Below, piece after piece: positions 12,541 to 60,500 of a DNA stretch of 64,000 bases. Position 1 is the first letter of the stretch. Every line of letters starts with the position of its first letter. A model generated the notes under the pieces. It had not been told where the DNA came from. It searched no databases and saw nothing but the letters and a program-made list of their open reading frames with translations. The DNA is from Akkermansia sp. (GTDB lineage: Bacteria; Verrucomicrobiota; Verrucomicrobiia; Verrucomicrobiales; Akkermansiaceae), in NCBI GenBank assembly GCA_017472085.1, contig JAFUQZ010000021.1, positions 1 through 64,000 of the forward strand, read 5' to 3'. The translations under genes were made by a program, and so were the position numbers.

Positions 12541-13428
12541 TCAGCGGCGATGACCGCCGCCACGATGCCCACCATGCCCTCCACCGCGGTGCCCGCCCAT
12601 GCTGCCACCACTCGGGCGATGACTCATGCCGGACGAACGGCTCATACCACCGCTACTCGGGCGGTTCATGCTGCCGCCGGGGCGGGTATTCGGGCTGCCC
12701 GGGCGATTCATGCTGCCACCGGGGCGGGTATTCGGGCTGCCCGGGCGGTTCATGCTGCCACCGGGGCGGGTATTCGGGCTGCCCGGGCGATTCATGCTGC
12801 CACCGGGGCGAGTGTTCGGGCTGCCCGGGCGATTCATGCTGCCACCGGGGCGAGTGTTCGGCTGCCCGGCATGCGCACCGTGGTTCGGGCGCTTTCCGGG
12901 TCTGTTGGCATGCCCGCCGGGGTTAAATGGACGGTTCTGCGGCTTCCCTGCATGGTGAAGATGGCCTGCGGGTTTTCCGGCATGAGCGGGTGCACCATGA
13001 TGGAGAGAATGACTCGGACCATGATGTCCGCCGGAGGGGCGGCGACCGGGGTGATGACCATGCGGGTGGTGGCTCGGGCAGTGAGAGCGGTGAATATGGC
13101 GCGGATAGCGCCAGTGACCGCTGTACCACGGCGCCGGCCCCCAGGCCGGCACGATACAGGCCGCCGTCAATGCACCAAAGGTGAACACCGCCGCCCCGTA
13201 GGGATCATACCCATACACGGGACGTCCGTAATAATAACCGTAAATCGGGAAACCCGCCGCATCATAGCTGGCATCCGTCCAGGCAGCCACATGACCATGG
13301 GAATCCACTGCAATACCACCGCTGCCGCCCACGGCTACCTCTCCGTGAGGTCCCACCGTCACAAAGCAGGAGGAAAGCATCACAGACGATGCCGCCAGCA
13401 CAGCCAGATAAATGGATTTTTTTTTCAT
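12541..13428 (-). CDS. His-rich lipoprotein with 14-residue tandem repeats
   Basis: 295 residues. The N-terminus MKKKSIYLAVLAASSVMLSSC is a lipoprotein signal with a lipobox ending at Cys21. A Gly/Tyr-rich part (GYYYGRPVYGYDPYG) follows, then a His/Pro/Gly-rich region. From about residue 190 there are five near-identical 14-residue repeats (GSPNTRPGGSMNRP). The tail is rich in Ser, Gly, Arg and His (HRGGGHGGHRGGGHRR). The His clusters suggest metal binding or a disordered envelope or surface protein, but this is inference. The repeat unit is encoded by a 42-bp DNA repeat, so copy number could vary between strains. Confidence 0.75.
   Translation of the reverse strand: MKKKSIYLAVLAASSVMLSSCFVTVGPHGEVAVGGSGGIAVDSHGHVAAWTDASYDAAGFPIYGYYYGRPVYGYDPYGAAVFTFGALTAACIVPAWGPAPWYSGHWRYPRHIHRSHCPSHHPHGHHPGRRPSGGHHGPSHSLHHGAPAHAGKPAGHLHHAGKPQNRPFNPGGHANRPGKRPNHGAHAGQPNTRPGGSMNRPGSPNTRPGGSMNRPGSPNTRPGGSMNRPGSPNTRPGGSMNRPGSPNTRPGGSMNRPSSGGMSRSSGMSHRPSGGSMGGHRGGGHGGHRGGGHRR
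12658..12867. repeat. Five 42-bp tandem repeats inside a lipoprotein gene
   Basis: The string TTCATGCTGCC recurs at 12665, 12707, 12749, 12791 and 12833, exactly 42 bp apart. Units differ by single bases (G/A at the base before TTCATG; GGTATT or GAGTGTT). The period keeps the reading frame. Confidence 0.9.
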
Positions 13429-21228: not shown

Positions 21229-21269
21229 GACTTTTCTTCTGAGTATCAAATGCGCGCGCTTAGCACGCC

Positions 21270-21418
21270 TATTCCTCAGGAATAGTTTTTCATACGCACG
21301 CTGTGCGTTTTCGCACAAGGCGGCAGCCTTGTTTTCACAGCTCCCGCAAGGGTGCTTTTTCATCCGTGATATTCACGACAGGAGCATCGGATGAAAAAAA
21401 AGCCTGCTGCCGCAGGCT
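21270..21418 (-). repeat. Hairpin array, TTTTCA/TGAAAA family, inverted partial copy
   Basis: Short hairpins alternate with TTTTCA-type spacers: TATTCC/GGAATA, CGCAC/GTGCG, CAAGGC/GCCTTG, AGCTCCC/GGGTGCT, CGTGA/TCACG, then after GATGAAAA the hairpin AGCCTGC/GCAGGCT. Order and sequence match the unit at 55296-55537 read in reverse complement, from its last hairpin back to the AAGCCTGC one. The final hairpin also serves as a terminator. Confidence 0.8.
21393..21418 (-). terminator. Terminator of the His-rich lipoprotein gene (array hairpin)
   Basis: Minus strand: AGCCTGC/GCAGGCT (21401-21407 with 21412-21418) followed by eight T. It is the last hairpin of the array copy and lies 15 bases past the stop codon of the next gene. 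Confidence 0.85.
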
Positions 21419-21432
21419 GATGACACCGGGCT

Positions 21433-43895: not shown

Positions 43896-46800
43896 ATGAA
43901 ATTACATCTCCCCACGCGCCTTCGCGCAGCTGTTCTCGCCTGCTTCGCAGTCGTGACCTCATTCACCACCACCTTCGCCACGGGTGCCCTCACCGGCGGC
44001 GCGTTCGCCGTTGCCATCGCCGGTAGTCAGGCACTTGCGGCTTATGATGCAACCGAGGCTATTTACTCCGGAACCGGTAATACTAACATTAATTTTGAGA
44101 ATGTGCCGGCGGGAAAGACGCTGACATTTGCAATGTCCCAAGACAATAGCCAGAGAAATTACTTTAGTAACGCCAATCTCACATATAACGGCGATATTAT
44201 AATCAACGGTGGCAGTGACGGCACAACGGGTCTTATTATCAATGATGGTTATAAAGGGAAGGTTATTACGTTTGCCGGTGCAGTCACCGGTAATGGTGTC
44301 ATTAAGAAAACATACAAGGGAACCAATATAACTTTTGCTTTTACGGGTGACGCTACTGATTTCACCGGCAAAATGGACATGGCCGGAGATGGTAACGGTA
44401 ACCATTACAAACTGAAATTCTCGACGACAAATAACAGTTCGAGCACCAAAGGCGTTTCCGGCACGGGAGATATTACCTTTCAGGGGACTACTGATAGTCT
44501 CGTATATGATTACTCCGGAGGTAATACAGTTTATGTGACGAATGCCATCACTGTCGATAATGATGCCTCTAGCAAGGTCGTTCTGTCCGGAACGGATGAG
44601 GTGGTGTTTACGAAAAATGTTACCATTCACCAATTATTTGGAATTGTCGGAAATGATGCTGACCCCACCGGCTCCGCGAATGCCTCTAAGATCACGTTCA
44701 AAGGGGCTAGTTCGACCTTGGGCAAGAGCAATGTAACAAACACCATCACCTCTGCTCTGGAAGTGGCGGAGGGAGCGAATCTGACGCTGGCCGGCACGAT
44801 GTGTTTTGCTTCTCTGGGGGATACTGCACGGGTGACGGGCGCCGGCAGCGTAAGTATTGCTGACGGTTTTACGATGGAATTAGGGGCGGATTTTACCCCG
44901 GAGCTGAAGGAATACAAAGTATTTGGTGAGAATCTGACTCTGACCGGATGGGAAGAACTGACCGCTTCCAGTTTACTGAAGAGCGGGCAGACGATGAATC
45001 GTTCCCGGATAGAGATAACTGCAACCGGCTTTAAGTTCACAGAGATTGGTGCTGAGTACACGGATATGACTACCACCGGGACGCAAAACTGGAATTATAC
45101 AGATACCATTTGGACTACTGGTCAGAATGACAGTGATGATCCTATCGCTTTTGCGGCTGGTGACAGTGCCGTGTTCTCCTCAGATGTAGATTTGACGCTG
45201 ACGGCGACAGAGATAGTTGCCGATGCCGTAACGGTGAATGGTGGCGCCAACCTGACACTGACGGGTAATGGAAACAAACTGAACTGCGCGGATATTACAC
45301 TGAACGGAAATTTGGTGTTGAAAGACAATGTGTTGGCGAATACCAGTCGTGTAAGTGGCACCGGCCCAATGTCCATCGCGGGTGAGGTTCTGTTCGATGA
45401 GAGCCATAGATTTTCATCCTACACGGGAGATATTATCGTACAAAATGGAGGTATTCTGAAGGTGGGGAGCTCTGTGGGAGGAAATGGAGGTGTATTGGGG
45501 GAAGATCTTTTCGCGAACAGTGCTTCCACGCGCACGATAACCGTTCAACAAGGTGGTACCATTGACCTAAATGGCTCGGCTGATTTTTACTACGCCCTTG
45601 TGCTGGCAAATGATTCTGTGTTGAAAAATTCCGGGAGCGGTGTAGGAACCGGTAGCAGGTCATTGCCCAAGACAACGCTGACCGGTGATGCGGAGATAAC
45701 CACGGGAAGTCGTTTGGGTATGTTGGGAAGCAATTACTCCAAGACGACTCTGAATCTGGGAGGACATAAACTGACCAAGAAAGGTGATGGCACGTTCCAC
45801 CTGCTTAATACAGATGTTTCTGCCGGTACCCTGCAGGTGGATGCCGGTGTAATTGAGATTCTTTACCATGATCAAGCCTATGAAGGTAAGTTGAACAATG
45901 TGACATTCTCTCAGGGCACCGGGTACAGCTTTACGACTCTCGCTGATACCATCATGGAAAACACCCAGATTAAGTCTGATGGTACATCGATCATCAAGCT
46001 TCAGCGGGGAGGGATAAAGTTCACAAAAGGCGGCACCGTCAGCAGTCTTGCTTTGCAGAATGCAGGTACAAGCCTCACCATTGAGCAAGGCGCGTCCGTT
46101 TCGGTTACGAACGTAGAGTTGGCCGCTCCCATAGTTAACAAGGGTACATTATCGATTACAGGTACCCTGACCGTAGCCGATTTGGCCGGGTTCACTCCAA
46201 CGGTTTCAACGGGCACTCTTTCCTATGAGGATGCGGACGGAAATAGCGCGGTATCCGGTTATCTGACCGGAGAGCGAGTTTATACCCTGATAGAGAATAC
46301 CGGTGAGCTCAACGATTCGACAATCACCACTGTGGCAGGGGTGGAAGGTGAATATGAAAATGGTCAGCTGACGGTTGATACCCTTGATGACACTATCTTC
46401 TACGTTAACGTTGATCCTGCCACCGGAAAGCCTGATGTGGTTACGGCGGTGGATTTGGGAAGTACGGCAGATAATGTTGCCAGACGGTATCACATTAACG
46501 GCGGCACTCTGGAGGTGGGTACGGATGGGAATAATATTCTGGCGACGGCTACCGGTACAACGGGTATCATAAAGCTGACCGCTGATGCTCAAGTTTCTTC
46601 CAACTCGGAGATACCGTTCAGCGGTGACTTACAGGTGGTGGGTACAGCTGAAAGGCAGACGGTTTTGACACTTGGTGGCACCGTAAATGCACAGGCATGT
46701 AAGAGTGCCAAGGCCAGCATTGCTTCCTGTACTTCGGTGACACTGGATAACGGTAAGCTGGCATATCAGGCGGCGCCTGAAACGGTGAGAAATCTGACCA

Positions 46801-49800
46801 TAACCAACAATGGCGCTGCGATTCAATTTAAGGATTATAAAGATGGCCCTACTATCGAAGATGCCACGGTTTTCGCAGGGACCACCACGTTGGGCGGTGT
46901 TCTGACAATCACAGCTGATTACAAGTATGCCGCTCGCTTCGAAAGACTTTACGGTGCGGGTGAACTGGTAGCAGGTTCTGCCGGGGAGTTCTCTATTCTT
47001 GGCATTAATTCTTTGTCCGGCTTTTCGGGCAAGCTTACGTTTTCTAAAGCTAATGGCAACACGGATATTGCTGTCTCGACCGGAACAACTGCTGTCAACT
47101 TCAAAGGTATTTCTGTTACGAATGCCATGACGTTGGATCTGAATGCGGAAGCAGCTACTACCATGACGGAGGGGCTTTCATTCCATAACGGTGCGACCGT
47201 TATCACGACTGCTTCAAATGGCGGTAGTTTGGAAACATCTCTGGTAGTCAATGAGGACCGGGCTGAGAATGATCGTACGTACAGCGTTCTTCGCCATGCA
47301 GGTTCAGGATTGACAGTCAATGAGATCACACTGAATGACACCGCCAGACTGCAGGCAGAGTTTGATGCTGACGCATTGAGTATCAAAGCCGGTAGAGATA
47401 CACAGCTCAAGGTTGTACAGGGTCATACGCTCACGGTTACTTCATTGAGTCCCATCCCGGGTTCTGATGATAGTTTCCTTACCATTGGAGGCAGTGGAAA
47501 GGTCAACCTGAATGGTACAGGAAGTGTTGCTTCCTTAGGTATCGGGACATGGGGCACAAGTCCGATCGTGGATTTGAACGGTACGTATAGTGTGGGGAGA
47601 CTGCGCATGTCGGAGGTGAGCGAGTCAAAACTCAATCTTAATACGGGTTCAACGCTTAACATAACCGGAACGACTAATGACAACTCTACGAACAGAAGCA
47701 TTCTCCTTGCCCACTGGGGTTATGCTTCCACTCTGGTGCAGGATGGAGGAACCTTGAATGCCGCCGGAGCGGTGATGTATACCGGGTGGACAGGATCCGG
47801 CACGTATCAGGCGAAATCCGGTACTGCCACATTGAAAGGTATTTCGTTCCTGGCTCAGGAGTGGGGTGGAAACAACTACAGAGGCTCATTCCTTCTGGGA
47901 GACGAAACAAGCGGCAGCGCTCGTATCAATATCGGCAGTGAAGGCATATACGGAATCAATAGTGGTGCCGGTGGGGCTGAGGTAACCGTCAAGCTCGGTA
48001 ACGGCACACTGGGTGCTACATCTGACTGGACAATGGGATATGCAGAGAACACCACCGGTACGAATGTAGAGCTTATCGGTATCAACGGCGGTACGGTCAT
48101 TGATACAGCAGATACCACATCCGGTAGTGGTGGTCATACCATCACGATTGATTCGCCATTGGTGGGTAGTGGTAAGTTGGTGAAGGTGGGTGCCGGCACG
48201 TTGAAACTGACGGCGACCAACACCTACAGCGGTGGTACAACCCTCAACGGCGGTACACTGGAGGTGGCCGCAGAGTCGGCTCTGGGTAGTGGAACTCTTG
48301 GCATCACCGGCGGTACGCTGGATGTGACGGGTAATGTCACGCTGGGCGATACTGTGAGCACCACGGTATCGGGCGGCAGCCTGAAGGCATCGCATGCCGA
48401 CGGTTGGACGCTGACCGGTGCAAGCGTGGGCGGTGCTGCGGCGGATGCCGACAGCACCGGCAAGGTGACGCTGAAGAACTCCACCATCACCGGTAATATT
48501 ACGGGTAACGGCAAGCTGGTACTCTCCGGCACGACGCATGCCACGGCGAATGCCACGGTAAGCGGTGCGACTGTGTCCGGTATCACCGTAATGACAGCAG
48601 ATGCCACGAAGCTGACGCTAGACAACACTACCATCAGTTCTGCCATCACCAACGACGGTTCTCTGGAGCTGAGCGGTACGCAGAATGTGACACTGGCCGG
48701 TACTTCCGTTACCTCATATTCGGATGTTTTAAACGGATACAAAACGACAACGGATACCTATGCTCTGGCGAGTGGAACGACTGTTACGACTGCCGCCGGT
48801 ACAACCTGGCAGGTGAATGGTGAGACGGTAACGGATTCCGATTTGACGGACATCAGCTTTAATGGCTATAACCTGATTGTCCAGACAGGCGATTCCGCCG
48901 GAAAGGTCTACTACATCAACAGCGGCAGCGTGGAGTACAAGGCCGATGCCGGATGTGCGGATGCAAGCAAACTGCAGCTGACGGGCGGTAAGCTGGTGAT
49001 GAGTAAGGAACTGGACACCGCCGTGACCACGGGTGGTATCGCCGTGACGGGCAGCAGCACCACGCTGGAGCTGAACGCCGAGCTGGATGCCGGGAAGCTG
49101 AGCCTGGACACGGACGCTGCCACCGTCCTGATGGGCACCGGCACGCTGAATCTGGGCACGGGCACCTCGCTGGACTCCGGCATCTCGCTGGGCACGGAGA
49201 CGGATGCCAGGTGGACGGGCACGGTGAAAGTGGCCGGTACCGCGCTGACCGATGCCGACCTGAGCAGTCTGGGAGTGAGCGGGTCCACTATCGAGCTGGA
49301 TGATACGGACGGCAGCCTGAAGGGCGGCACGTATGCTGCCAAGGTGTTGCTGAGCAATGGCTCGCAGCTGACGCTGGGCGCCAACAACGCCTTTAACGGC
49401 GGGCTGGATGCCACGGCCGGTTCGCTGTCGGTTGTCGGGAAAAACAGCATCAGCACGCTCACGCTGGCTGATGGAGCTGATTTGGGTATCAACCTGGCCG
49501 GGATGGGACTGAGCTCGCTCAAGGATATTGGTACGGATGCCATTCTGACGGTGGGTACGCTGAATGCCGCCACCGCCGGTGGAGCGGTGAATCTGAAGGC
49601 GCTGGCCGGCAATCCCCTGCTGCTGACCATGAGCGATGGCCAGAGCATTACCCTGGCCGATATCACCACCTGCAACGCCTCGCTGGGGCTGCTCATCGGC
49701 AGCAGCACGTCCAACGTGTTGGAGGTGGAAGATGCCAATGGCTTCACCTATACCTACACTCTGACAGCAGACGACACGACCGGGCACAAGCTGGTGACGG

Positions 49801-52800
49801 TGACGGCTAGGTTGAATGCTGCCGGTTGGGTGGGCGATACCGCCGATACCTGGAAGAGCTCGGACGCGGTCGGCGGAACTGATGCCAACTGGGCAGGTGC
49901 CGTAGGCGGCTTCTACGGCTTCGGCTCCGGAACGGTGAATCTGGATACCGCCGGAGTGACGACCGGGGATGTGATTGTCTCTGCAACCACCGGAACAACG
50001 GCATACACCTTTGAGGGCGGCGCTCTGAGTGCCGATACGCTGGCGGTGAATGCCGGTAGTCTGGTACTCAACAATGAGAGCGTGAGCACCACAGCCTCGG
50101 CGCAGGTCTCTGACAGTGCCGGACTGACGGTGAATGCCGGTAAGAAGCTGACGGTCGGTACGGATATGGCTGTGCTGGATACCGCAGAGCTGACCAACAA
50201 TGGCAGCATCAAGGTGACGGGCACGCTGAGCGTGGACAAGACGGCTACCGTGACCAACAACGGCACGCTGGAGGTCGGCAGCATCAATGCCTCCGGCGCC
50301 ACGATTGCCAACAGCGGCACTCTGACCACCGGCGGCGGTACCATCGGCAAACTGACCGGAGAGGGCAGCCTGAGCAACAGCGGTACGCTTACCATTGAAA
50401 GCAAGGAGGCGACCAAGCTGGGCGCGCTTGCCAACAGCGGTATACTGAACGTGGGCGGCGACCTGATGGTGAAGACGGCGGTGACGGCCGGCGGCACGGT
50501 GAACGCTGCCAATGTGACGGTGGACGGCGATGCCGCCTTCACCTCCCTGACCACGGGCAAGCTGAAAGCTTCTTCGCTGACGGTGAAGGATGCCACCATC
50601 ACCACGCTGGATACCGATAAACTGACGGTGAGTGACAAGGGTGCAGTGAAAGTGACCTCTGCCACCACACTGAGCAGCCTGAGCAACAAGGGCATCCTGG
50701 AGGTGACAGGTGATCTGACCCTGACGGCCCCGGTAACGGCCGGCGGTACGGTGAAAGCCTCCAACGTGACGGTGAACGGCGATGCGGCCTTTACCACGCT
50801 GAGCACGGGCAAGCTGAAGGCTTCTTCGCTGACGGTGAAGGATGCAATCATCACCACTCTGGATACGAAGCAGCTGACGGTGCTGGGCGGTACGGTGGCC
50901 GTGACCAATGGTGCGACCCTGACGGCGCTGACCGGTACCGGCACGCTGGATGCTGCCGACAAGGTGAAGCTGGCACAGGCCGTTTCCGGCATGGTGAATG
51001 TAGAGACGCCTGAAATCGAATTGGCCACCTATGGCAGCAGCCTGGGCGCCCTCACCACGGATGCCGTGACCATGCTGGAAGGCAGCACGCTGAGCACTGA
51101 GAAAGCTCTGCTGACGGTGAATGCCGTGAACACCCTCAGCGGTGATACCATCAGCCTGGATGTGAGCGAATCCGCCTATGCAGCGCTGAGCAAACTGGCC
51201 GATGGAAGGTATACCGCCGGGGATTATCTCCTCATTGACGGAGCAGCTTCCGTGGATATGTTCACCTATGCGAACGCAGAGCAGCTGGACTCCATCATCG
51301 CTACCGGTATGAATGCCGGTCTGACGGTGAATGATGGTGTGCTTTCCTTGAGCATTTCCGAAATCACCAATGAGAACGGTGAGGTTGTGGGTATGATTTG
51401 GGATACCACCGGCGGCAACACCATTGCCAACAACGGTTATAGAATTGATACGGAAGCCGGCTTCTACAAGTCATTGGATTATGTGAAGCAGGTGGTGGTG
51501 ACAGATTCCGTCACCTTCGACCTCGCGGCAGACAGCGTGGGTGATTCCGTGGCCGGAAATGCCAGCGAGCCGGTTGCCGGATTGTTCATCCGTAACCTGA
51601 GCGGCGGCGGCGAGCTGACCATCAAGGGCAATACCGCCGCACAGGATGTGGCCACCCTCATGAACACTCCCGGCAGGAAGATTACCGCCGTGGCTCTGAC
51701 GGCAGATGCCGCCACGGTCAACCTCGGACTGCCGAAGGGGGCTGAGGGTTATCTGGTGAGCGACTTGAGCAGCACCGGCCCGACGCTGAAATCCCTGAGT
51801 CTGGTGAACCGCTCCGCCGTGAACGTGAACATCAATACGGAGGTGCTGGGTGATACCGATGTGGCTGACTACACACGCCTCAGCGTGAAGGAGGGCAACA
51901 TCCTGACCACCGGCATGCTGAGCGGCACGGATGAGGCAGAAATAGGCGGTGTCATCACCGTGCGCAAGGGCGGTGTCTATACCGGCACTTACGATGAAGC
52001 CACCCTCGTGGCGGCAGATGGCAGCAACCTGCGCCTGCGTACCGGCGGCCGCCGCAGCATGAGCCTGGTGGTGAACGGCGGTGGTCAGACCACGCTGGAT
52101 TCCGCCGGGCAGGACGGCAGCATGGACTTCCTGCGCGTGGGCGAATCGCCGATGGCCCGTGTGATGAGTGTCGGCTCTGCCACGCTGAACCTCCTGAACA
52201 CGACTGCAACGGATGACGGCATACGCCACAGCACGATTACCCTCACCTCCGATGAAGGAAACTACATCAACAAGTCGGTGGTCACGCTGTCGCTCGGTGC
52301 GGCAGAGACCGCCCGCACCCTCAGCACCCCCGGCAGCCCCGTGGTGATTGATGGCCCGGTAGATGTGACCGCATCCTCCATCGTGGTCAATATGCTGGGT
52401 GATACCGTGAAGAACGGCGTGCTGGAGGTCAATACCGGGTCCGACAGTAATCTGACGCTGGCCCGTTTCGTGACCGGCGGCAATGTGGAGGGCAACACGG
52501 TGACCCTGACCGGCACCCCTGAGATGCAGGCCCTGCTCAACAAGTACTACACCAATGCCCGCCTGGACAGCAAGGGCGCCATCAAGGTGGACCGCGTGAC
52601 GGATTACTACGGCTCCCGCATGCAGCTGAGCGACAATGCCCGGGTGGGTATCGGCATGGCCGATGCCGCTCTGGTGAAGCTCAACCCGCAGGCCAACCGC
52701 AGCGAGTACACCGAGCTGGCCGGAGTGCTGGACTCTCTGGATGCTGCCGTGGCTACCGGCAATAGGCAGGCTGCCGATGAGCTGGGCGCTGCCGTGAGCG

Positions 52801-53771
52801 GTGCTTCCGTGGCTGCCCTGGGTGCTGCCGTGGCCGGTGATGTGGAACGCCAGTTGACGGGAATCCGCAACCGCACCACCACCATGGGTGTGGACCAGAC
52901 GCAGGTGAATGAGAATATGCCCTACTTCAACGCCTGGATTAACGCCGAGGGTGACTTCCGCCGTCTGGATGAGGATGGTACGGCTGCCGGCTACGAACTC
53001 ACCTCCTGGGGCGGTACTGTCGGCTTCGATGTGGATATGACTCCGCGTCTGACCATGGGTCTGGCTGCCACCGCCATGTATGGGGACTTCACCGCCAAGT
53101 CTGCCGACCATGCAGAGGGTGATCTGGACACCTACTACGTGACGGCCTTTGCCCGGTATGCCGCCAATCGCTGGTCGCACACCTTCGTGGCAACCGCCGG
53201 CATGGCGGACACCTCGCTCAAGCGCACGGTGACACATGCCAACGGCAGTTACAGCACAGAGGGTGATGCAGAGGCCATCAGCTTCGGCTTCCTGTACGAG
53301 TTGGGCTATGTGGTGGCCATGAACGAGAGCGCCACCGCCTGCCTGCAGCCCGTGTTCAACGTGATGCTGGCTCACAGCTCGCTGGATGGTTACTCTGAGG
53401 AAGGTCGCGATGCTGCGCTTCGGATGGGCGGTGTGGATATGACCACCGTCACCTTCGGCATGGGTGCCCGCGCTCAGGCCATTATGGGGACGAACCTCTA
53501 TAACCGCTCCTCCCTGGTGGAAGGTCGCGCCCTGCTCAAGGTGCGCACCGGCGATACTGAGGCTGAGGCAGAGAACACCCTCGGTGCCGTTCCCGGTGCC
53601 ATGGGCAGCGTCAAGGCCGCAGAGATGGGCACCATCGGTGCCGAGCTGGGTGTGGGTCTGACCGTGCCCATGGGTGCCGCCGGCGGCGCCATCTTCGCGG
53701 ATGCCTCTCTGGAGGTGAGCAGCGGCTATACCAACATCAACGGTACGGTCGGCTATCGCATCAACTTCTGA
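43896..53771 (+). CDS. Giant autotransporter adhesin (PATR repeats, beta-barrel)
   Basis: 3,291 residues. A long signal region (1-48, MKLHLPTRLRAAVLACF to SQALA) precedes a passenger of Gly/Thr/Ser/Asn-rich beta-helix repeats. It includes a clear autotransporter-associated (PATR) repeat near 1426-1470 (GSGKLVKVGAGTLKLTATNT, then YSGGTTLNGGTLEV). Residues from about 3008 form the outer-membrane autotransporter barrel (AWINAEGDFRRLDEDG, SWGGTVGFDVD), ending in Phe (GTVGYRINF). The passenger is displayed on the cell surface, probably for binding mucin or other cells. An 84-residue unit is duplicated at DNA 50439-50690 and 50691-50942. The first 1,400 codons use more A/T than the rest. Confidence 0.93.
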   Translation: MKLHLPTRLRAAVLACFAVVTSFTTTFATGALTGGAFAVAIAGSQALAAYDATEAIYSGTGNTNINFENVPAGKTLTFAMSQDNSQRNYFSNANLTYNGDIIINGGSDGTTGLIINDGYKGKVITFAGAVTGNGVIKKTYKGTNITFAFTGDATDFTGKMDMAGDGNGNHYKLKFSTTNNSSSTKGVSGTGDITFQGTTDSLVYDYSGGNTVYVTNAITVDNDASSKVVLSGTDEVVFTKNVTIHQLFGIVGNDADPTGSANASKITFKGASSTLGKSNVTNTITSALEVAEGANLTLAGTMCFASLGDTARVTGAGSVSIADGFTMELGADFTPELKEYKVFGENLTLTGWEELTASSLLKSGQTMNRSRIEITATGFKFTEIGAEYTDMTTTGTQNWNYTDTIWTTGQNDSDDPIAFAAGDSAVFSSDVDLTLTATEIVADAVTVNGGANLTLTGNGNKLNCADITLNGNLVLKDNVLANTSRVSGTGPMSIAGEVLFDESHRFSSYTGDIIVQNGGILKVGSSVGGNGGVLGEDLFANSASTRTITVQQGGTIDLNGSADFYYALVLANDSVLKNSGSGVGTGSRSLPKTTLTGDAEITTGSRLGMLGSNYSKTTLNLGGHKLTKKGDGTFHLLNTDVSAGTLQVDAGVIEILYHDQAYEGKLNNVTFSQGTGYSFTTLADTIMENTQIKSDGTSIIKLQRGGIKFTKGGTVSSLALQNAGTSLTIEQGASVSVTNVELAAPIVNKGTLSITGTLTVADLAGFTPTVSTGTLSYEDADGNSAVSGYLTGERVYTLIENTGELNDSTITTVAGVEGEYENGQLTVDTLDDTIFYVNVDPATGKPDVVTAVDLGSTADNVARRYHINGGTLEVGTDGNNILATATGTTGIIKLTADAQVSSNSEIPFSGDLQVVGTAERQTVLTLGGTVNAQACKSAKASIASCTSVTLDNGKLAYQAAPETVRNLTITNNGAAIQFKDYKDGPTIEDATVFAGTTTLGGVLTITADYKYAARFERLYGAGELVAGSAGEFSILGINSLSGFSGKLTFSKANGNTDIAVSTGTTAVNFKGISVTNAMTLDLNAEAATTMTEGLSFHNGATVITTASNGGSLETSLVVNEDRAENDRTYSVLRHAGSGLTVNEITLNDTARLQAEFDADALSIKAGRDTQLKVVQGHTLTVTSLSPIPGSDDSFLTIGGSGKVNLNGTGSVASLGIGTWGTSPIVDLNGTYSVGRLRMSEVSESKLNLNTGSTLNITGTTNDNSTNRSILLAHWGYASTLVQDGGTLNAAGAVMYTGWTGSGTYQAKSGTATLKGISFLAQEWGGNNYRGSFLLGDETSGSARINIGSEGIYGINSGAGGAEVTVKLGNGTLGATSDWTMGYAENTTGTNVELIGINGGTVIDTADTTSGSGGHTITIDSPLVGSGKLVKVGAGTLKLTATNTYSGGTTLNGGTLEVAAESALGSGTLGITGGTLDVTGNVTLGDTVSTTVSGGSLKASHADGWTLTGASVGGAAADADSTGKVTLKNSTITGNITGNGKLVLSGTTHATANATVSGATVSGITVMTADATKLTLDNTTISSAITNDGSLELSGTQNVTLAGTSVTSYSDVLNGYKTTTDTYALASGTTVTTAAGTTWQVNGETVTDSDLTDISFNGYNLIVQTGDSAGKVYYINSGSVEYKADAGCADASKLQLTGGKLVMSKELDTAVTTGGIAVTGSSTTLELNAELDAGKLSLDTDAATVLMGTGTLNLGTGTSLDSGISLGTETDARWTGTVKVAGTALTDADLSSLGVSGSTIELDDTDGSLKGGTYAAKVLLSNGSQLTLGANNAFNGGLDATAGSLSVVGKNSISTLTLADGADLGINLAGMGLSSLKDIGTDAILTVGTLNAATAGGAVNLKALAGNPLLLTMSDGQSITLADITTCNASLGLLIGSSTSNVLEVEDANGFTYTYTLTADDTTGHKLVTVTARLNAAGWVGDTADTWKSSDAVGGTDANWAGAVGGFYGFGSGTVNLDTAGVTTGDVIVSATTGTTAYTFEGGALSADTLAVNAGSLVLNNESVSTTASAQVSDSAGLTVNAGKKLTVGTDMAVLDTAELTNNGSIKVTGTLSVDKTATVTNNGTLEVGSINASGATIANSGTLTTGGGTIGKLTGEGSLSNSGTLTIESKEATKLGALANSGILNVGGDLMVKTAVTAGGTVNAANVTVDGDAAFTSLTTGKLKASSLTVKDATITTLDTDKLTVSDKGAVKVTSATTLSSLSNKGILEVTGDLTLTAPVTAGGTVKASNVTVNGDAAFTTLSTGKLKASSLTVKDAIITTLDTKQLTVLGGTVAVTNGATLTALTGTGTLDAADKVKLAQAVSGMVNVETPEIELATYGSSLGALTTDAVTMLEGSTLSTEKALLTVNAVNTLSGDTISLDVSESAYAALSKLADGRYTAGDYLLIDGAASVDMFTYANAEQLDSIIATGMNAGLTVNDGVLSLSISEITNENGEVVGMIWDTTGGNTIANNGYRIDTEAGFYKSLDYVKQVVVTDSVTFDLAADSVGDSVAGNASEPVAGLFIRNLSGGGELTIKGNTAAQDVATLMNTPGRKITAVALTADAATVNLGLPKGAEGYLVSDLSSTGPTLKSLSLVNRSAVNVNINTEVLGDTDVADYTRLSVKEGNILTTGMLSGTDEAEIGGVITVRKGGVYTGTYDEATLVAADGSNLRLRTGGRRSMSLVVNGGGQTTLDSAGQDGSMDFLRVGESPMARVMSVGSATLNLLNTTATDDGIRHSTITLTSDEGNYINKSVVTLSLGAAETARTLSTPGSPVVIDGPVDVTASSIVVNMLGDTVKNGVLEVNTGSDSNLTLARFVTGGNVEGNTVTLTGTPEMQALLNKYYTNARLDSKGAIKVDRVTDYYGSRMQLSDNARVGIGMADAALVKLNPQANRSEYTELAGVLDSLDAAVATGNRQAADELGAAVSGASVAALGAAVAGDVERQLTGIRNRTTTMGVDQTQVNENMPYFNAWINAEGDFRRLDEDGTAAGYELTSWGGTVGFDVDMTPRLTMGLAATAMYGDFTAKSADHAEGDLDTYYVTAFARYAANRWSHTFVATAGMADTSLKRTVTHANGSYSTEGDAEAISFGFLYELGYVVAMNESATACLQPVFNVMLAHSSLDGYSEEGRDAALRMGGVDMTTVTFGMGARAQAIMGTNLYNRSSLVEGRALLKVRTGDTEAEAENTLGAVPGAMGSVKAAEMGTIGAELGVGLTVPMGAAGGAIFADASLEVSSGYTNINGTVGYRINF
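50439..50942 (+). repeat. Duplicated 252-bp unit in the autotransporter passenger
   Basis: The encoded stretch from GILNVGGDLMVKTAVTAGGT recurs 84 residues later as GILEVTGDLTLTAPVTAGGT. TGKLKASSLTVKDA is shared exactly in both units, and DNA identity is high around it. Confidence 0.85.
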
Positions 53772-55295: not shown

Positions 55296-55537
55296 GTGAT
55301 ACCCACCGTACCACCCACGCAGCGCGGGTGGTTTTCGCAGAAAGGCCGTTCAGGCCTTTCTTTTCACCCCGGCAGAGCCGGTTTTCACAAGCCTGCGCGA
55401 GCAGGCTTTTTTCATCCGATGCTGCATTTTGCAAGCCGCAGATGAAAAAGCTCCCTTGACGGGAGCGATGAAAACAAGGCTGTCGCCATGAGTGAAAACG
55501 CACGGCGTGCGGGTGAAAAATATTTCTGCCGGAATAG
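55296..55537. repeat. Hairpin array, TTTTCA/TGAAAA family, unit 1
   Basis: A run of unlike short hairpins: CCACCC/GGGTGG (55311-55331), AAAGGCC/GGCCTTT (55341-55359), CCGGC/GCCGG (55369-55381), AAGCCTGC/GCAGGCTT (55389-55408), a weak central one, GCTCCC/GGGAGC (55450-55466), GGC/GCC (55478-55487), CGCAC/GTGCG (55499-55511) and a TATTT/GGAATA-like end. The spacers are TTTTC(A) four times in the left half (55332, 55361, 55382, 55407). They are TGAAAA four times in the right half (55443, 55469, 55493, 55514). Confidence 0.9.
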
Positions 55538-55762
55538 GTGATACCCACCGTACCACCTGCGCAGCGCGGGTGGTTTTCGCAGAAAGGCCGTTCAGGCCTT
55601 TCTTTTCATCCCGGCAGAGCCGGTTTTCACAAGCCTGCGCGAGCAGGCTTTTTTCATCCGATGCTGCATTTTGCAAGCCGCAGATGAAAAAGCTCCCTTG
55701 ACGGGAGCGATGAAAACAGGGCTGTCGCCTTGAGTGAAAACGCACTGCGTGCGGGTGAAAAA
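55538..55762. repeat. Hairpin array, TTTTCA/TGAAAA family, unit 2
   Basis: Direct copy of unit 1 at an exact offset of 242 bases, differing at about a dozen positions. Changes sit mostly in loops or restore pairing; for example the hairpin CGCACGGCGTGCG becomes CGCACTGCGTGCG, and the weak GGC/GCC stem becomes GGGC/GCCT. It ends 10 bases before the transporter stop codon. Confidence 0.9.
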
Positions 55763-57374: not shown

Positions 57375-57450
57375 AATGCGCGCGTATCTGTACCTGCCGC
57401 CCCAATATCATACCCGGCCCTTTTTGTCAAGCTCCGTCTGTTCTCGTACT

Positions 57451-57652
57451 ATTCCTGCGGAATGGTTTTACATCCGCATGCAGTGCGTTTTCGCGCAAGG
57501 CGCCAGTCTTGTTTTCGCAGCTTCCGAAAGGGAGCTTTTTCATCTGAGGCTTTATTGAGCGAGCATCGGATGAAAAAAGCCTGCCTGCGCAGGGGTGAAA
57601 AAGAAATGCCTGTCCGGCCTTTCTGCGAAAACCACCCGCTGCGCCGGTTGGT
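57451..57652. repeat. Hairpin array, TTTTCA/TGAAAA family, inverted full-length copy
   Basis: Reverse-complement order of the unit at 55296: ATTCC/GGAAT (57451-57462), CGCA/TGCG, CAAGGC/GTCTTG, AGCTTCC/GGGAGCT (57519-57535), the weak centre, AAGCCTG/CGCAGG, AAATGCC/GGCCTTT (57604-57622) and ACCACCC/GGTTGGT (57630-57652). One hairpin (CCGGC/GCCGG) is missing. Spacers are TTTTA/TTTTCG/TTTTCG/TTTTTCA, then TGAAAAAA/TGAAAAA/GCGAAAA/ATGAAA. Confidence 0.85.
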
Positions 57653-57701
57653 ATGAAATGCATCATTTATTCCTGCGGGGTATGAATGAGATGCAAAAAA
57701 T

Positions 57702-58290: not shown

Positions 58291-59622
58291 ATGCTGAACA
58301 CCGACACAATAGCTGCCATGGCTACCTCGCCCGGAACGGGGGCGCTGGCGGTTCTGCGCATCAGTGGCCCGGAGGCCATGGAGGTCCTGCAACGCTGCAC
58401 GAGGGGGGGCCGGGTGCCGGAGCCGCGCCGCGCCACGCTGGTGCGTGTGCGGGATGCGGAGGGGCGGGTGCTGGATGAAGCGGTGGCAACGTATTTTGCC
58501 GCACCTGCCAGTTTCACCGGTGAGGATGTGGTAGAGTTGAGCTGCCATGGCGGAATGCTGGTGAGCCGTCGGGTGCTGGAGCGGGCATTGGCCTGTGGGG
58601 CGCGCCCGGCAGAGGCGGGGGAATTTTCCCGCCGGGCCTTTGAGAACGGGCGGATGGATTTGACGCAGGCAGAGGCCATCATGGATATCATCTCTGCGGG
58701 CAGCGATTTGGCGCTGCGGGCAGCGCAGAACCAGCTGCAGGGGGCGATTCGGCACCGGGTGGAGGAGATAGCGCAGCAGCTCATTGCCGTAACGGCGCAT
58801 GTGGAGGCCTATATCGATTTCCCGGAAGAAGATATTACCCCGGATACCATGCAGGAGCTTACTGCCGGGCTGGATAATGCCGCAGCACAGCTGCGCCGGT
58901 TGCTGGATACGGCTGATGAGGGGCGTATTCTGCGTGAGGGCATACGCACGGCCATCGTGGGGGCTCCGAATGTGGGTAAATCCAGCCTGCTGAACATGCT
59001 TCTGGGGTACGAGCGCGCCATTGTCAGCAATACCGCCGGTACTACCCGTGATACTATTGAGGAAAGCGTGACCGTGGGGGGGCTCTGCCTGCGCCTGATT
59101 GACACAGCGGGGCTGCACCACAGCGAGGATGCGCTGGAGCAGGCCGGCATGGAGCGTAGTCGCCGCGCCGGAGCGGAGGCTGACCTGCTGCTGGTGGTGG
59201 CGGATGCCTCTGCACCATGCGCGGAACTCCCGCTGGAGCAGACCGGGGCTCACCGCCTCTGCATCCTCAACAAGGCTGATTTGCCGGAGCATCCTGATTG
59301 GAAAGAGCGCGCTGCGCTGCGTATCTCATGCCGCACCGGACAGGGACGTGAGGAGCTGGAAGCGGCGATAGGAGAGCTCTTCCTGCATCAACGCGCTGAA
59401 ACCGACACCCTTGCCGCCATCAACCTGCGCCACCGTCATGCCCTGCAGGCGGCGCTGGAAGCCACTCTGCACGCCCGCGATGCCATACTGAGCGGGGTAT
59501 CACCGGAGTTCGTCTCCGTGGACTTGCGCGAGGCGCTGGAGGCGGTGGGCGAAATCACCGGTCGCATTGATACGGAAGATATCCTCGACCATGTGTTCTC
59601 CACTTTCTGTCTGGGGAAATGA
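58291..59622 (+). CDS. mnmE: tRNA uridine-5-carboxymethylaminomethyl GTPase
   Basis: 443 residues. The N-terminal folate-binding domain (AAMATSPGTGALAVLRISG) and a central helical part enclose a G domain with G1 GAPNVGKS (224-231), AGTTRDTI (249-256), DTAG (271-274) and NKAD. The C-terminal CLGK (440-443) holds the catalytic Cys. With MnmG it modifies the wobble U34 of several tRNAs. mnmG, rnpA and yidC are not nearby. The last codons run straight into a hairpin array. Confidence 0.96.
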   Translation: MLNTDTIAAMATSPGTGALAVLRISGPEAMEVLQRCTRGGRVPEPRRATLVRVRDAEGRVLDEAVATYFAAPASFTGEDVVELSCHGGMLVSRRVLERALACGARPAEAGEFSRRAFENGRMDLTQAEAIMDIISAGSDLALRAAQNQLQGAIRHRVEEIAQQLIAVTAHVEAYIDFPEEDITPDTMQELTAGLDNAAAQLRRLLDTADEGRILREGIRTAIVGAPNVGKSSLLNMLLGYERAIVSNTAGTTRDTIEESVTVGGLCLRLIDTAGLHHSEDALEQAGMERSRRAGAEADLLLVVADASAPCAELPLEQTGAHRLCILNKADLPEHPDWKERAALRISCRTGQGREELEAAIGELFLHQRAETDTLAAINLRHRHALQAALEATLHARDAILSGVSPEFVSVDLREALEAVGEITGRIDTEDILDHVFSTFCLGK

Positions 59623-59624
59623 TG

Positions 59625-59953
59625 TGTGCCTCCGTCGGGAGGCACATGCTCGGCGTTTGTGTAGACAAGTTTCGCAAGGCGCGAGGCGAAATTCTGCCGA
59701 GTCAGCTGCCGCTTCCACGGCAGAGCGAAATTCCGCTTCGCGGAGCGAAATTAACAGCATGCGCTGTCAGCGAAATTGCTGCCTACGGCAGCAGTGGTGG
59801 AGTACCGCAGCCCTTTGGGCTGCCGAATTCAGTCACTACCGCCGTTCCGGCGGTAATTTCGCTATCTTCGCAGAGGATAATTTCGCTCATGGCGATAGCC
59901 ATGAATTTCGTTCGAGCGGAGCGAGAATTTCGCGTGCCTCCGTCGGGAGGCAC
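59625..59953. repeat. Hairpin array, GCGAAATT/AATTTCGC family
   Basis: The identical 20-bp hairpin GTGCCTCCGTCGGGAGGCAC stands at both ends (59626-59645, 59934-59953). Inside, unlike hairpins are separated by GCGAAATT at 59686, 59725, 59745 and 59770, then by AATTTCGC at 59855, 59879, 59904 (one mismatch) and 59926. Hairpins include CTGCCG/CGGCAG (59706), CCGC/GCGG (59733), ACAGC/GCTGT (59754), GCTGCC/GGCAGC (59778), GCAGCCC/GGGCTGC (59807), ACCGCCG/CGGCGGT (59838) and CATGGC/GCCATG (59888). No coding or transposase signal is seen. Confidence 0.9.
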
Positions 59954-60047: not shown

Positions 60048-60500
60048 ATGTACAATCGCGACGAAAAGACTCTGATTCTGTTCAAGCCGGACTGCGTCCG
60101 CAAGAACCTCTCCGGTGTGATTCTGCAGCGTCTGCTGGCTGAGGGCTTCCGCCTGCGCGGCATGAAGATGATGCAGCTGAATGATGAACTGCTGCGTGAG
60201 CACTATGGCCACATCATTGACCTGGTGATTGACGGCAAGCCGCTGTTCCCCACGCTCAATGCTTTCATGCAGAGCAGCCCCGTGGTGGCTCTGGTGCTTT
60301 CCGGTCCCGGGGTCATCACCCGCGTGCGCACCATCCTGGGGCCGACCAACTCCATGAAGGCCGACAAGGGCACTATCCGTGGTGATTTCGGTACGAACAG
60401 CATGCTGAATATCTGCCACGCATCCGATTCTCCCGAGAGCGCCGAGGTGGAAATCAAGCGCTTCTTCGCTGACAGTGAGCTTTTTGACAACGTGGACTGA
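60048..60500 (+). CDS. ndk: Nucleoside diphosphate kinase
   Basis: 150 residues from ATG 60048 (MYNRDEKTLILFKPDCV). The phosphorylated His124 stands in NICHASDSPESAEVEI; GPGVITRVRTILGPTNS and GTIRGDFGTN complete the nucleotide site. It equalises nucleoside triphosphate pools by ping-pong phosphotransfer. The start at 59994 is rejected because it falls within the -35 box. A bidirectional terminator lies between it and the amidase gene. Confidence 0.97.
   Translation: MYNRDEKTLILFKPDCVRKNLSGVILQRLLAEGFRLRGMKMMQLNDELLREHYGHIIDLVIDGKPLFPTLNAFMQSSPVVALVLSGPGVITRVRTILGPTNSMKADKGTIRGDFGTNSMLNICHASDSPESAEVEIKRFFADSELFDNVD

What the first reader, a model, noticed from the sequence alone, without database searches (positions are those of the whole stretch)
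59625..59953. Second hairpin array with another spacer (GCGAAATT) but the same 4+4 mirror design
Between mnmE and ndk, GCGAAATT appears four times, then AATTTCGC four times (one with a mismatch). Unlike hairpins fill the gaps and an identical 20-bp hairpin caps both ends. The spacer differs from the family at 55 kb, yet the layout is the same. Two sequence dialects with one architecture in one genome point to a class of element defined by design rather than sequence, perhaps copied or built by a shared enzyme. The element as a whole could fold into a multi-branched cruciform.
Basis: seen in the sequence. Interest (0 to 1): 0.88.

Follow-up and report, generated by a model that had tools for sequence, protein, structure and literature searches.

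The report
Mobile hairpin array carrying Gut-1 motifs
The mirrored row of hairpins after the mnmE gene is a worn copy of a jumping-DNA element of gut Akkermansia, and each half of that element is what RNA databases list as a gut RNA of unknown origin (Gut-1), although its hairpins behave more like DNA palindromes than like a conserved RNA.

Summary
Between mnmE and ndk lie four GCGAAATT and four reversed copies (one with a mismatch), unlike hairpins between them, and an identical 20-bp hairpin at both ends.

It belongs to a dispersed repeat family of ruminant-gut Akkermansia. About nine further copies lie in this genome and 12 to 20 in two sister species. In relatives the array sits inside an IS630-type MITE: TA duplication in CTAG, shared terminal inverted repeats, one clean empty site, and an IS630 transposase fragment beside the same repeat in this genome. 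At mnmE-ndk itself there are no such ends. The sister species SIG73 has three tandem copies there, so the identical caps are boundaries of the tandem unit.

Each arm (four spacers, three inner hairpins) is a relative of Rfam Gut-1 RNA (RF01706). Other copies pass Rfam's cut-off, three of them in this genome; the window copy does not.

In arms that pass, 292 stem pairs contain no G-U pairs. This points to upkeep of DNA palindromes rather than of an RNA. I infer template switching within hairpins and slippage between spacers.

'Dialects with one architecture' is partly right: the 55-kb family is also 4+4. But the spacers share a GYGAAA core, and half-arrays are common.

The parts
58291..59622 (+). 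mnmE (443 aa), upstream gene; the array starts 3 nt after its stop
   Evidence: translation; relatives at 50-90% identity
59626..59645 (.). left cap hairpin GTGCCTCC GTCG GGAGGCAC; equals the boundary hairpin of the tandem unit in SIG73
59686..59693 (+). spacer 1, left arm (GCGAAATT)
59694..59723 (.). hairpin between spacers 1 and 2 (CTGCCG...CGGCAG)
59725..59732 (+). spacer 2, left arm
59733..59743 (.). hairpin CCGC TTC GCGG
59745..59752 (+). spacer 3, left arm
59753..59767 (.). hairpin ACAGC...GCTGT; other copies have a different hairpin (GGCTC...GAGCC) at this place
59770..59777 (+). spacer 4, left arm
59684..59781 (+). left arm as a whole: divergent Gut-1 (RF01706) match, 30.2 bits against a gathering score of 50, E 0.0057, model 1-77 complete
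59778..59792 (.). hairpin GCTGCC TAC GGCAGC, inner end of left arm
59807..59823 (.). central hairpin 1 GCAGCCC TTT GGGCTGC, conserved centre of the family
59838..59854 (.). central hairpin 2 ACCGCCG TTC CGGCGGT, conserved centre of the family
59855..59862 (-). spacer 1, right arm (AATTTCGC)
59863..59879 (.). hairpin TATCTTC GCA GAGGATA
59879..59886 (-). spacer 2, right arm
59887..59904 (.). hairpin TCATGGC GATA GCCATGA
59904..59911 (-). spacer 3, right arm, one mismatch (AATTTCGT)
59911..59926 (.). hairpin TTCGAGCGGAGCGAGA
59926..59933 (-). spacer 4, right arm
59825..59913 (-). second, opposite-strand Gut-1 match (central hairpin 2 and right arm), 25.5 bits, E 0.087
59934..59953 (.). right cap hairpin, identical to the left one
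59723..59937 (+). part homologous (85%) to the interior of the TA-flanked MITE copy in SIG73 (L157)
60048..60500 (+). ndk (150 aa), downstream gene

Best explanation
The array is a worn, locally tandem-type copy of a mobile palindromic element of ruminant-gut Akkermansia. In relatives the element spreads as a non-autonomous IS630 (Tc1/mariner-type) transposon. Its ends GTATANCGTTCGRTAAAT are cut and joined into TA inside CTAG by a transposase acting in trans, and the hairpin array is its cargo. The array has two arms facing each other round two central hairpins. Each arm has four 7-8-nt spacers and is a relative of the Rfam Gut-1 motif. The hairpins stay perfect because replication switches template across each short palindrome and so copies one stem arm from the other. 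The identical spacers are direct repeats either side of each hairpin, so slipped-strand replication removes or adds whole hairpins. At mnmE-ndk the terminal repeats are gone and the unit was amplified in tandem in the sister species. Shown: family, dispersal, TA insertion, tandem copies, Gut-1 relationship, absence of G-U pairs. Inferred: which transposase acts, template switching and slippage as the forces, and the lack of an RNA role.
For: Dispersed homologues in the own genome and sister species. Terminal repeats with CTAG/TA flanks in 4 of 6 genomes tested. A clean empty site: G000 GGATTAGCGGCTG against SIG73 ATAC-TA-[element]-TA-GCGGCTG. The array is absent at the orthologous site of a second copy in three relatives. 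A transposase start beside the same terminal repeat in the own genome matches NCBIfam IS630 at E 2e-11. The window core is 85% identical to the MITE interior. Three tandem units at mnmE-ndk in SIG73, the third lacking exactly two spacer-bounded hairpins. Gut-1 matches above cut-off in sibling copies, on both strands, as mirrored pairs. Distinct hairpins: 942 of 1,032 pairs Watson-Crick, all four pair types at every position, 10 G-U against 15 A-C. Gut-1 arms above cut-off: 0 G-U in 292 pairs, against 18 in 243 for tRNAs of the same loci.
Against: The window copy has no IS630 ends, so its own arrival by transposition is inferred from homology. The transposase was found only as fragments at contig ends of one genome and not in 58 relatives; repeats often fail to assemble in MAGs. 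Some copies (L162, L163) lack the outer ends and begin at AAATGGGAA, so the array may also move by another route. Only one empty site is clean. The loop-inversion signature expected of template switching is weak: 7 reverse-complement loop pairs against 2 and 1 in the two controls. Four spacers per arm in species with unrelated hairpins is not explained by slippage.
Confidence: 0.72

Rival explanations
1. Each arm encodes a functional small RNA, as Gut-1 was first described. Selection on RNA folding keeps the hairpins, and the single-stranded GUGAAAU spacers are the conserved functional letters.
For: RF01706 models exactly this motif, and relatives score up to 75.5 bits. The 2010 paper lists Gut-1 as a likely RNA found only in human gut sequence. 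Spacers are conserved while stems vary.
Against: No G-U in 292 stem pairs of arms above the cut-off, and 10 G-U against 15 A-C overall. The motif occurs as mirrored pairs on both strands and inside transposon cargo. No promoter-like site in the window.
Confidence: 0.15
2. The arrays act at gene ends as bidirectional terminators, mRNA stabilisers or gyrase/nucleoid-protein sites, in the way BIMEs do, and are kept for that.
For: Copies lie between genes; this one starts 3 nt after mnmE. Individual hairpins are stable.
Against: Only one terminator-like site, no more than in shuffles. Presence is patchy between sister species. mnmE is followed by other genes and no array in most relatives.
Confidence: 0.15
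3. REP/BIME-type repeats dispersed by a RAYT (IS200/IS605-like tyrosine transposase) that recognises each hairpin with its spacer as tag.
For: Short tag next to each hairpin, inverted and tandem arrangements, species-specific hairpins.
Against: Tag is GYGAAAT, not GTAG/GGAG/CGTC. Hairpins within one array differ from each other. The mobile unit has TA-flanked IS630 ends. RAYT genes were not searched for.
Confidence: 0.06
4. A chance cluster or an assembly artefact.
For: The genome is a fragmented MAG (96 contigs).
Against: An independent assembly (SIG73) has the same array at the same place and 15 or more elsewhere. Shuffles never reach the count.
Confidence: 0.01

Closest known systems
Gut-1 RNA motif (Rfam RF01706; Weinberg et al. 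2010, PMC2864571)
   Same: Four UGAAAU spacers and three hairpins. Sibling copies in the same genome score 51-56 bits and relatives up to 75.5, above the cut-off of 50.
   Different: Described as a free-standing RNA from human gut DNA. Here it is one arm of a mirrored DNA element in Akkermansia, present on both strands, mobile, and without G-U pairs. The window copy scores only 30.2 and 25.5 bits.
RUP of pneumococcus (IS630-Spn1-linked MITE; Delihas 2007, PMC2229807)
   Same: Short intergenic repeat with IS630-like ends at TA targets and the transposase supplied in trans; same kind of evidence.
   Different: RUP is 107 bp and has no reported internal hairpin array.
REP/BIME elements with RAYTs (PMC2817692)
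   Same: Intergenic palindromes in inverted and tandem arrangement, palindromes kept by complementary changes, species-specific.
   Different: REPs repeat one palindrome with a GTAG-type tag. Here each hairpin differs, only the spacer repeats, and the mobile ends are IS630-type.
ISY100 and IS630 (Tc1/mariner family; PMC2170065)
   Same: Insertion into TA with TA duplication, CTAG preferred by IS630.
   Different: Those carry their own transposase; this element does not.
Hairpins maintained by template switching (PMC8794818)
   Same: Perfect stems with multi-base compensatory change and occasional loop inversion explained by replication.
   Different: Described for rRNA and microRNA genes, where loop inversion is rare; here loops vary freely.

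Membership tests
Gut-1 RNA (RF01706) | covariance-model score at or above the gathering score (50 bits) | tested here: not met
   window arms 30.2 and 25.5 bits; own-genome siblings L010 55.6, L011 54.0 and L006 51.5 do meet it
Gut-1 RNA (RF01706) | layout of four UGAAAU segments separated by three hairpins | tested here: met
   full-length model match 1-77 on each of the two strands; spacer is GCGAAAT instead of GUGAAAU
Gut-1 RNA (RF01706) | stem covariation of the kind expected for RNA (G-U tolerated) | tested here: not met
   0 G-U and 3 A-C in 292 pairs of 38 arms above the cut-off
Gut-1 RNA (RF01706) | expressed as an RNA | not testable with these tools
   no transcriptome available
IS630-type MITE | terminal inverted repeats shared with an IS630-family transposase gene | tested here: met
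   for relatives' copies; the window copy itself lacks the terminal repeats
IS630-type MITE | TA target duplication with an empty site in a relative | tested here: met
   one clean case, SIG73 C23 against G000 C69; not the window copy
IS630-type MITE | no transposase of its own | tested here: met
   415-bp element fills the space between the terminal repeats with hairpins only
IS630-type MITE | movement by the cognate transposase | not testable with these tools
   needs a transposition assay
REP/BIME (RAYT) | GTAG- or CGTC-type tag beside one repeated palindrome | tested here: not met
   tag GYGAAAT; hairpins differ within each array
REP/BIME (RAYT) | cognate RAYT gene in the genome | not tested
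xerDC RNA (RF03062) | score at or above the gathering score (72.5) | tested here: not met
   28.6 bits, E 0.1

The most novel reading that the evidence does not exclude
A genus-wide class of mobile palindromes in which only a short spacer and the count of four per arm are conserved while the hairpins turn over completely. The covariation that made Rfam list one arm as the Gut-1 RNA would be a by-product of DNA template switching, so a published structured-RNA candidate would be a transposon arm rather than an RNA gene. The fixed number four would point to an unknown factor that binds or measures the arm.
Probability: 0.35. Interest if true: 0.8.

Novelty: new variant of a known kind. Interest (0 to 1): 0.6.

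Why it matters
It gives the Gut-1 motif a host lineage and a physical context: Akkermansia, and one arm of a mirrored mobile element. It offers a simple test, the G-U against A-C count, for telling RNA hairpins from DNA palindromes kept by replication, which could be applied to other candidate RNA families found by covariation alone. The arrays also form a natural series, in sister species, for watching hairpins gained, lost and repaired between fixed spacers.

Tried and rejected
A link to the tyrosine recombinase genes beside some own-genome copies (L006, L007, L010) was considered because attC-like hairpins came to mind; most copies have no such neighbour, so it was dropped. A first count of loop inversions (34 of 403 loop pairs) was wrong: palindromes read on both strands count themselves. 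With orientation fixed it is 7 against 2 and 1, which is only suggestive. A strict hairpin-array detector found few arrays because stems run into spacers; spacer-based parsing replaced it. The family-wide DNA search drawn evenly found nothing outside the genome; the nearest-relative search did. The xerDC RNA match is at chance level. An early notebook figure of 28 of 69 genomes for one search should read 22 of 69.

Full report
THE OBSERVATION. The array is as described. Four GCGAAATT (59686-59777) are followed by three AATTTCGC and one AATTTCGT (59855-59933), with unlike hairpins between them and the same 20-bp hairpin at 59626-59645 and 59934-59953. All seven exact copies of GCGAAATT in the 64-kb window lie here; 2.3 are expected in the whole window. 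The strand folds 11.6 standard deviations better than shuffles. mnmE ends at 59622 and ndk starts at 60048.

THE ORGANISM. mnmE relatives at 66-90% identity are nearly all Akkermansia MAGs, the closest ones from ruminants. The closest, SIG73 (90%), is genome G163, since the contig lengths agree.

A DISPERSED FAMILY. The array finds about nine more places in its own genome, all sharing the two central hairpins (two of these lie on overlapping contig ends). SIG73 has about 16 to 20 and G150 about 12 to 16, with fewer in G171 and traces in others. Many own-genome copies have only one arm, so the mirror is common but not required.

THE SAME LOCUS IN RELATIVES. SIG73 has three tandem units of about 300 bp between mnmE and ndk, with four cap hairpins for three units. 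The identical caps in the window are therefore most simply the boundaries of such a unit. The third SIG73 unit lacks exactly two hairpins, cut from spacer to spacer, and L167 and L171 each lack one. In most other relatives mnmE is followed by a different gene and no array; RGIG199 and RGIG7740 have arrays of another dialect (ATTTCAT, AATTCAT) directly after the mnmE stop.

MOBILITY. In SIG73, G150 and G171 paired ends CTAGTATANCGTTCGRTAAAT...ATTTAYCGAACGNTATACTAG are found, and in SIG73 and G150 the array sits inside them. This reads as C-TA-[element]-TA-G, the target IS630 is known to prefer (Tenzen and Ohtsubo 1991, cited in PMC2170065). One comparison is clean: SIG73 C23 carries the 415-bp element where G000 reads GGATTAGCGGCTG. 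A second copy (L163) is absent from the matching intergenic region in three relatives, though the exact join cannot be read there. In the own genome the same terminal repeat stands before a coding start at three contig ends; the 114-aa fragment matches NCBIfam IS630 transposase at E 2e-11 and Pfam HTH_23/HTH_32. It was not found in 58 relatives, which is weak evidence because multicopy insertion sequences drop out of MAGs. The same MITE ends also carry other cargoes in G000 and G150. The window copy is 85% identical over 59723-59937 to the MITE interior but has no such ends.

THE ARMS ARE GUT-1. Rfam gives sub-threshold, full-length Gut-1 matches to both halves of the window array, on opposite strands (30.2 and 25.5 bits). 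Sibling copies pass the cut-off of 50: L010, L011 and L006 in the own genome, and many in SIG73, G217, G159, G169, G150 and RGIG199, up to 75.5 bits. Gut-1 was published as a likely noncoding RNA found only in human gut sequence (PMC2864571). The motif is four UGAAAU segments with three hairpins, which is one arm of this element.

RNA OR DNA? Hairpins were read on the spacer strand. Of 1,032 outer stem pairs in 207 distinct hairpins, 942 are Watson-Crick, with all four types at every position, 10 are G-U and 15 are A-C. In 38 arms that pass the Gut-1 cut-off, 292 pairs hold no G-U and three A-C. tRNAs in the same loci have 18 G-U in 243 pairs; that control is small and the tRNA finder itself disfavours A-C. 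A hairpin selected as RNA should tolerate G-U on its own strand far better than A-C. The data fit a palindrome repaired as DNA. Template switching during replication is an established way to do this (PMC8794818). Its loop-inversion signature is present but weak here (7 against 2 and 1 in controls). The 55-kb family shows the same pattern (153 Watson-Crick, 1 G-U, 3 A-C).

DIALECTS AND THE NUMBER FOUR. A spacer pattern, three ATTTCRY spaced by 8-34 nt, hits 22 of 69 Akkermansia genomes, twelve of them 10 to 72 times, while other Verrucomicrobiales have 0-3 and the reversed control almost none (a few hits in G177, G159 and G217 are an unrelated tandem repeat). Hairpins of G217, G159, G169 and G175 share nothing with those here, yet arms of four spacers predominate. 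The 55-kb family is 4+4 with spacers of the GCGAAAA / GATGAAAA kind. So the spacer core and the count are kept while the hairpins turn over. Common descent with fast hairpin turnover is the simpler reading; why the count stays at four is unexplained.

VERDICT. A MITE-borne palindromic array with Gut-1 arms: known kinds of parts in a combination that I did not find described in the papers searched. The mechanism of hairpin upkeep is inferred.

Noticed in passing
window 55296-55762: Two tandem 242-bp copies of the TTTTC-spacer hairpin family, each 4+4; further pieces at 57449-57676 and 21268-21432; no Rfam match for the 55-57 kb copies.
   Followed up: partly
L217 850-1650 (G000 C90), L218, L219: IS630-type MITE ends around a different cargo, about 450-500 bp with hairpins and GGAATTTCA / AAATTTAAA spacers; in C90 nested beside another pair of ends.
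   Followed up: partly
L222, L223 (G150 C75, C67): The same MITE ends carry a third cargo with GAAGGACAATGGACAAAGAACAATGGACGAAGG.
   Followed up: no
L011 1202-1330; G177 C37:781-886; G217 C163:6044; G159 C29:2280: Tandem direct repeat of about 33 bp, CACATTTTCNGNACGACTTTT, in several Akkermansia genomes; not hairpins.
   Followed up: no
L300 900-1200 (G217 C104): Four-hairpin arrays with other spacers (GGTGAAGAA, AATCTCGT) directly beside the Gut-1-type array.
   Followed up: no
L038 7122-9273 (G000 C7): An array lies between two tyrosine recombinase-like genes.
   Followed up: partly
window 43896-53771: ORF of 3291 aa with internal repeats, autotransporter-like by appearance only.
   Followed up: no
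window 12610-12861: Five copies of a 42-bp repeat in step with a reading frame.
   Followed up: no
L004 1200-1300 (G000 C13): AdoCbl-II riboswitch match just above its cut-off, near an array.
   Followed up: no
L355, L398 (viral contigs): Runs of GTGAAAT with hairpins between them in two IMG/VR contigs.
   Followed up: no
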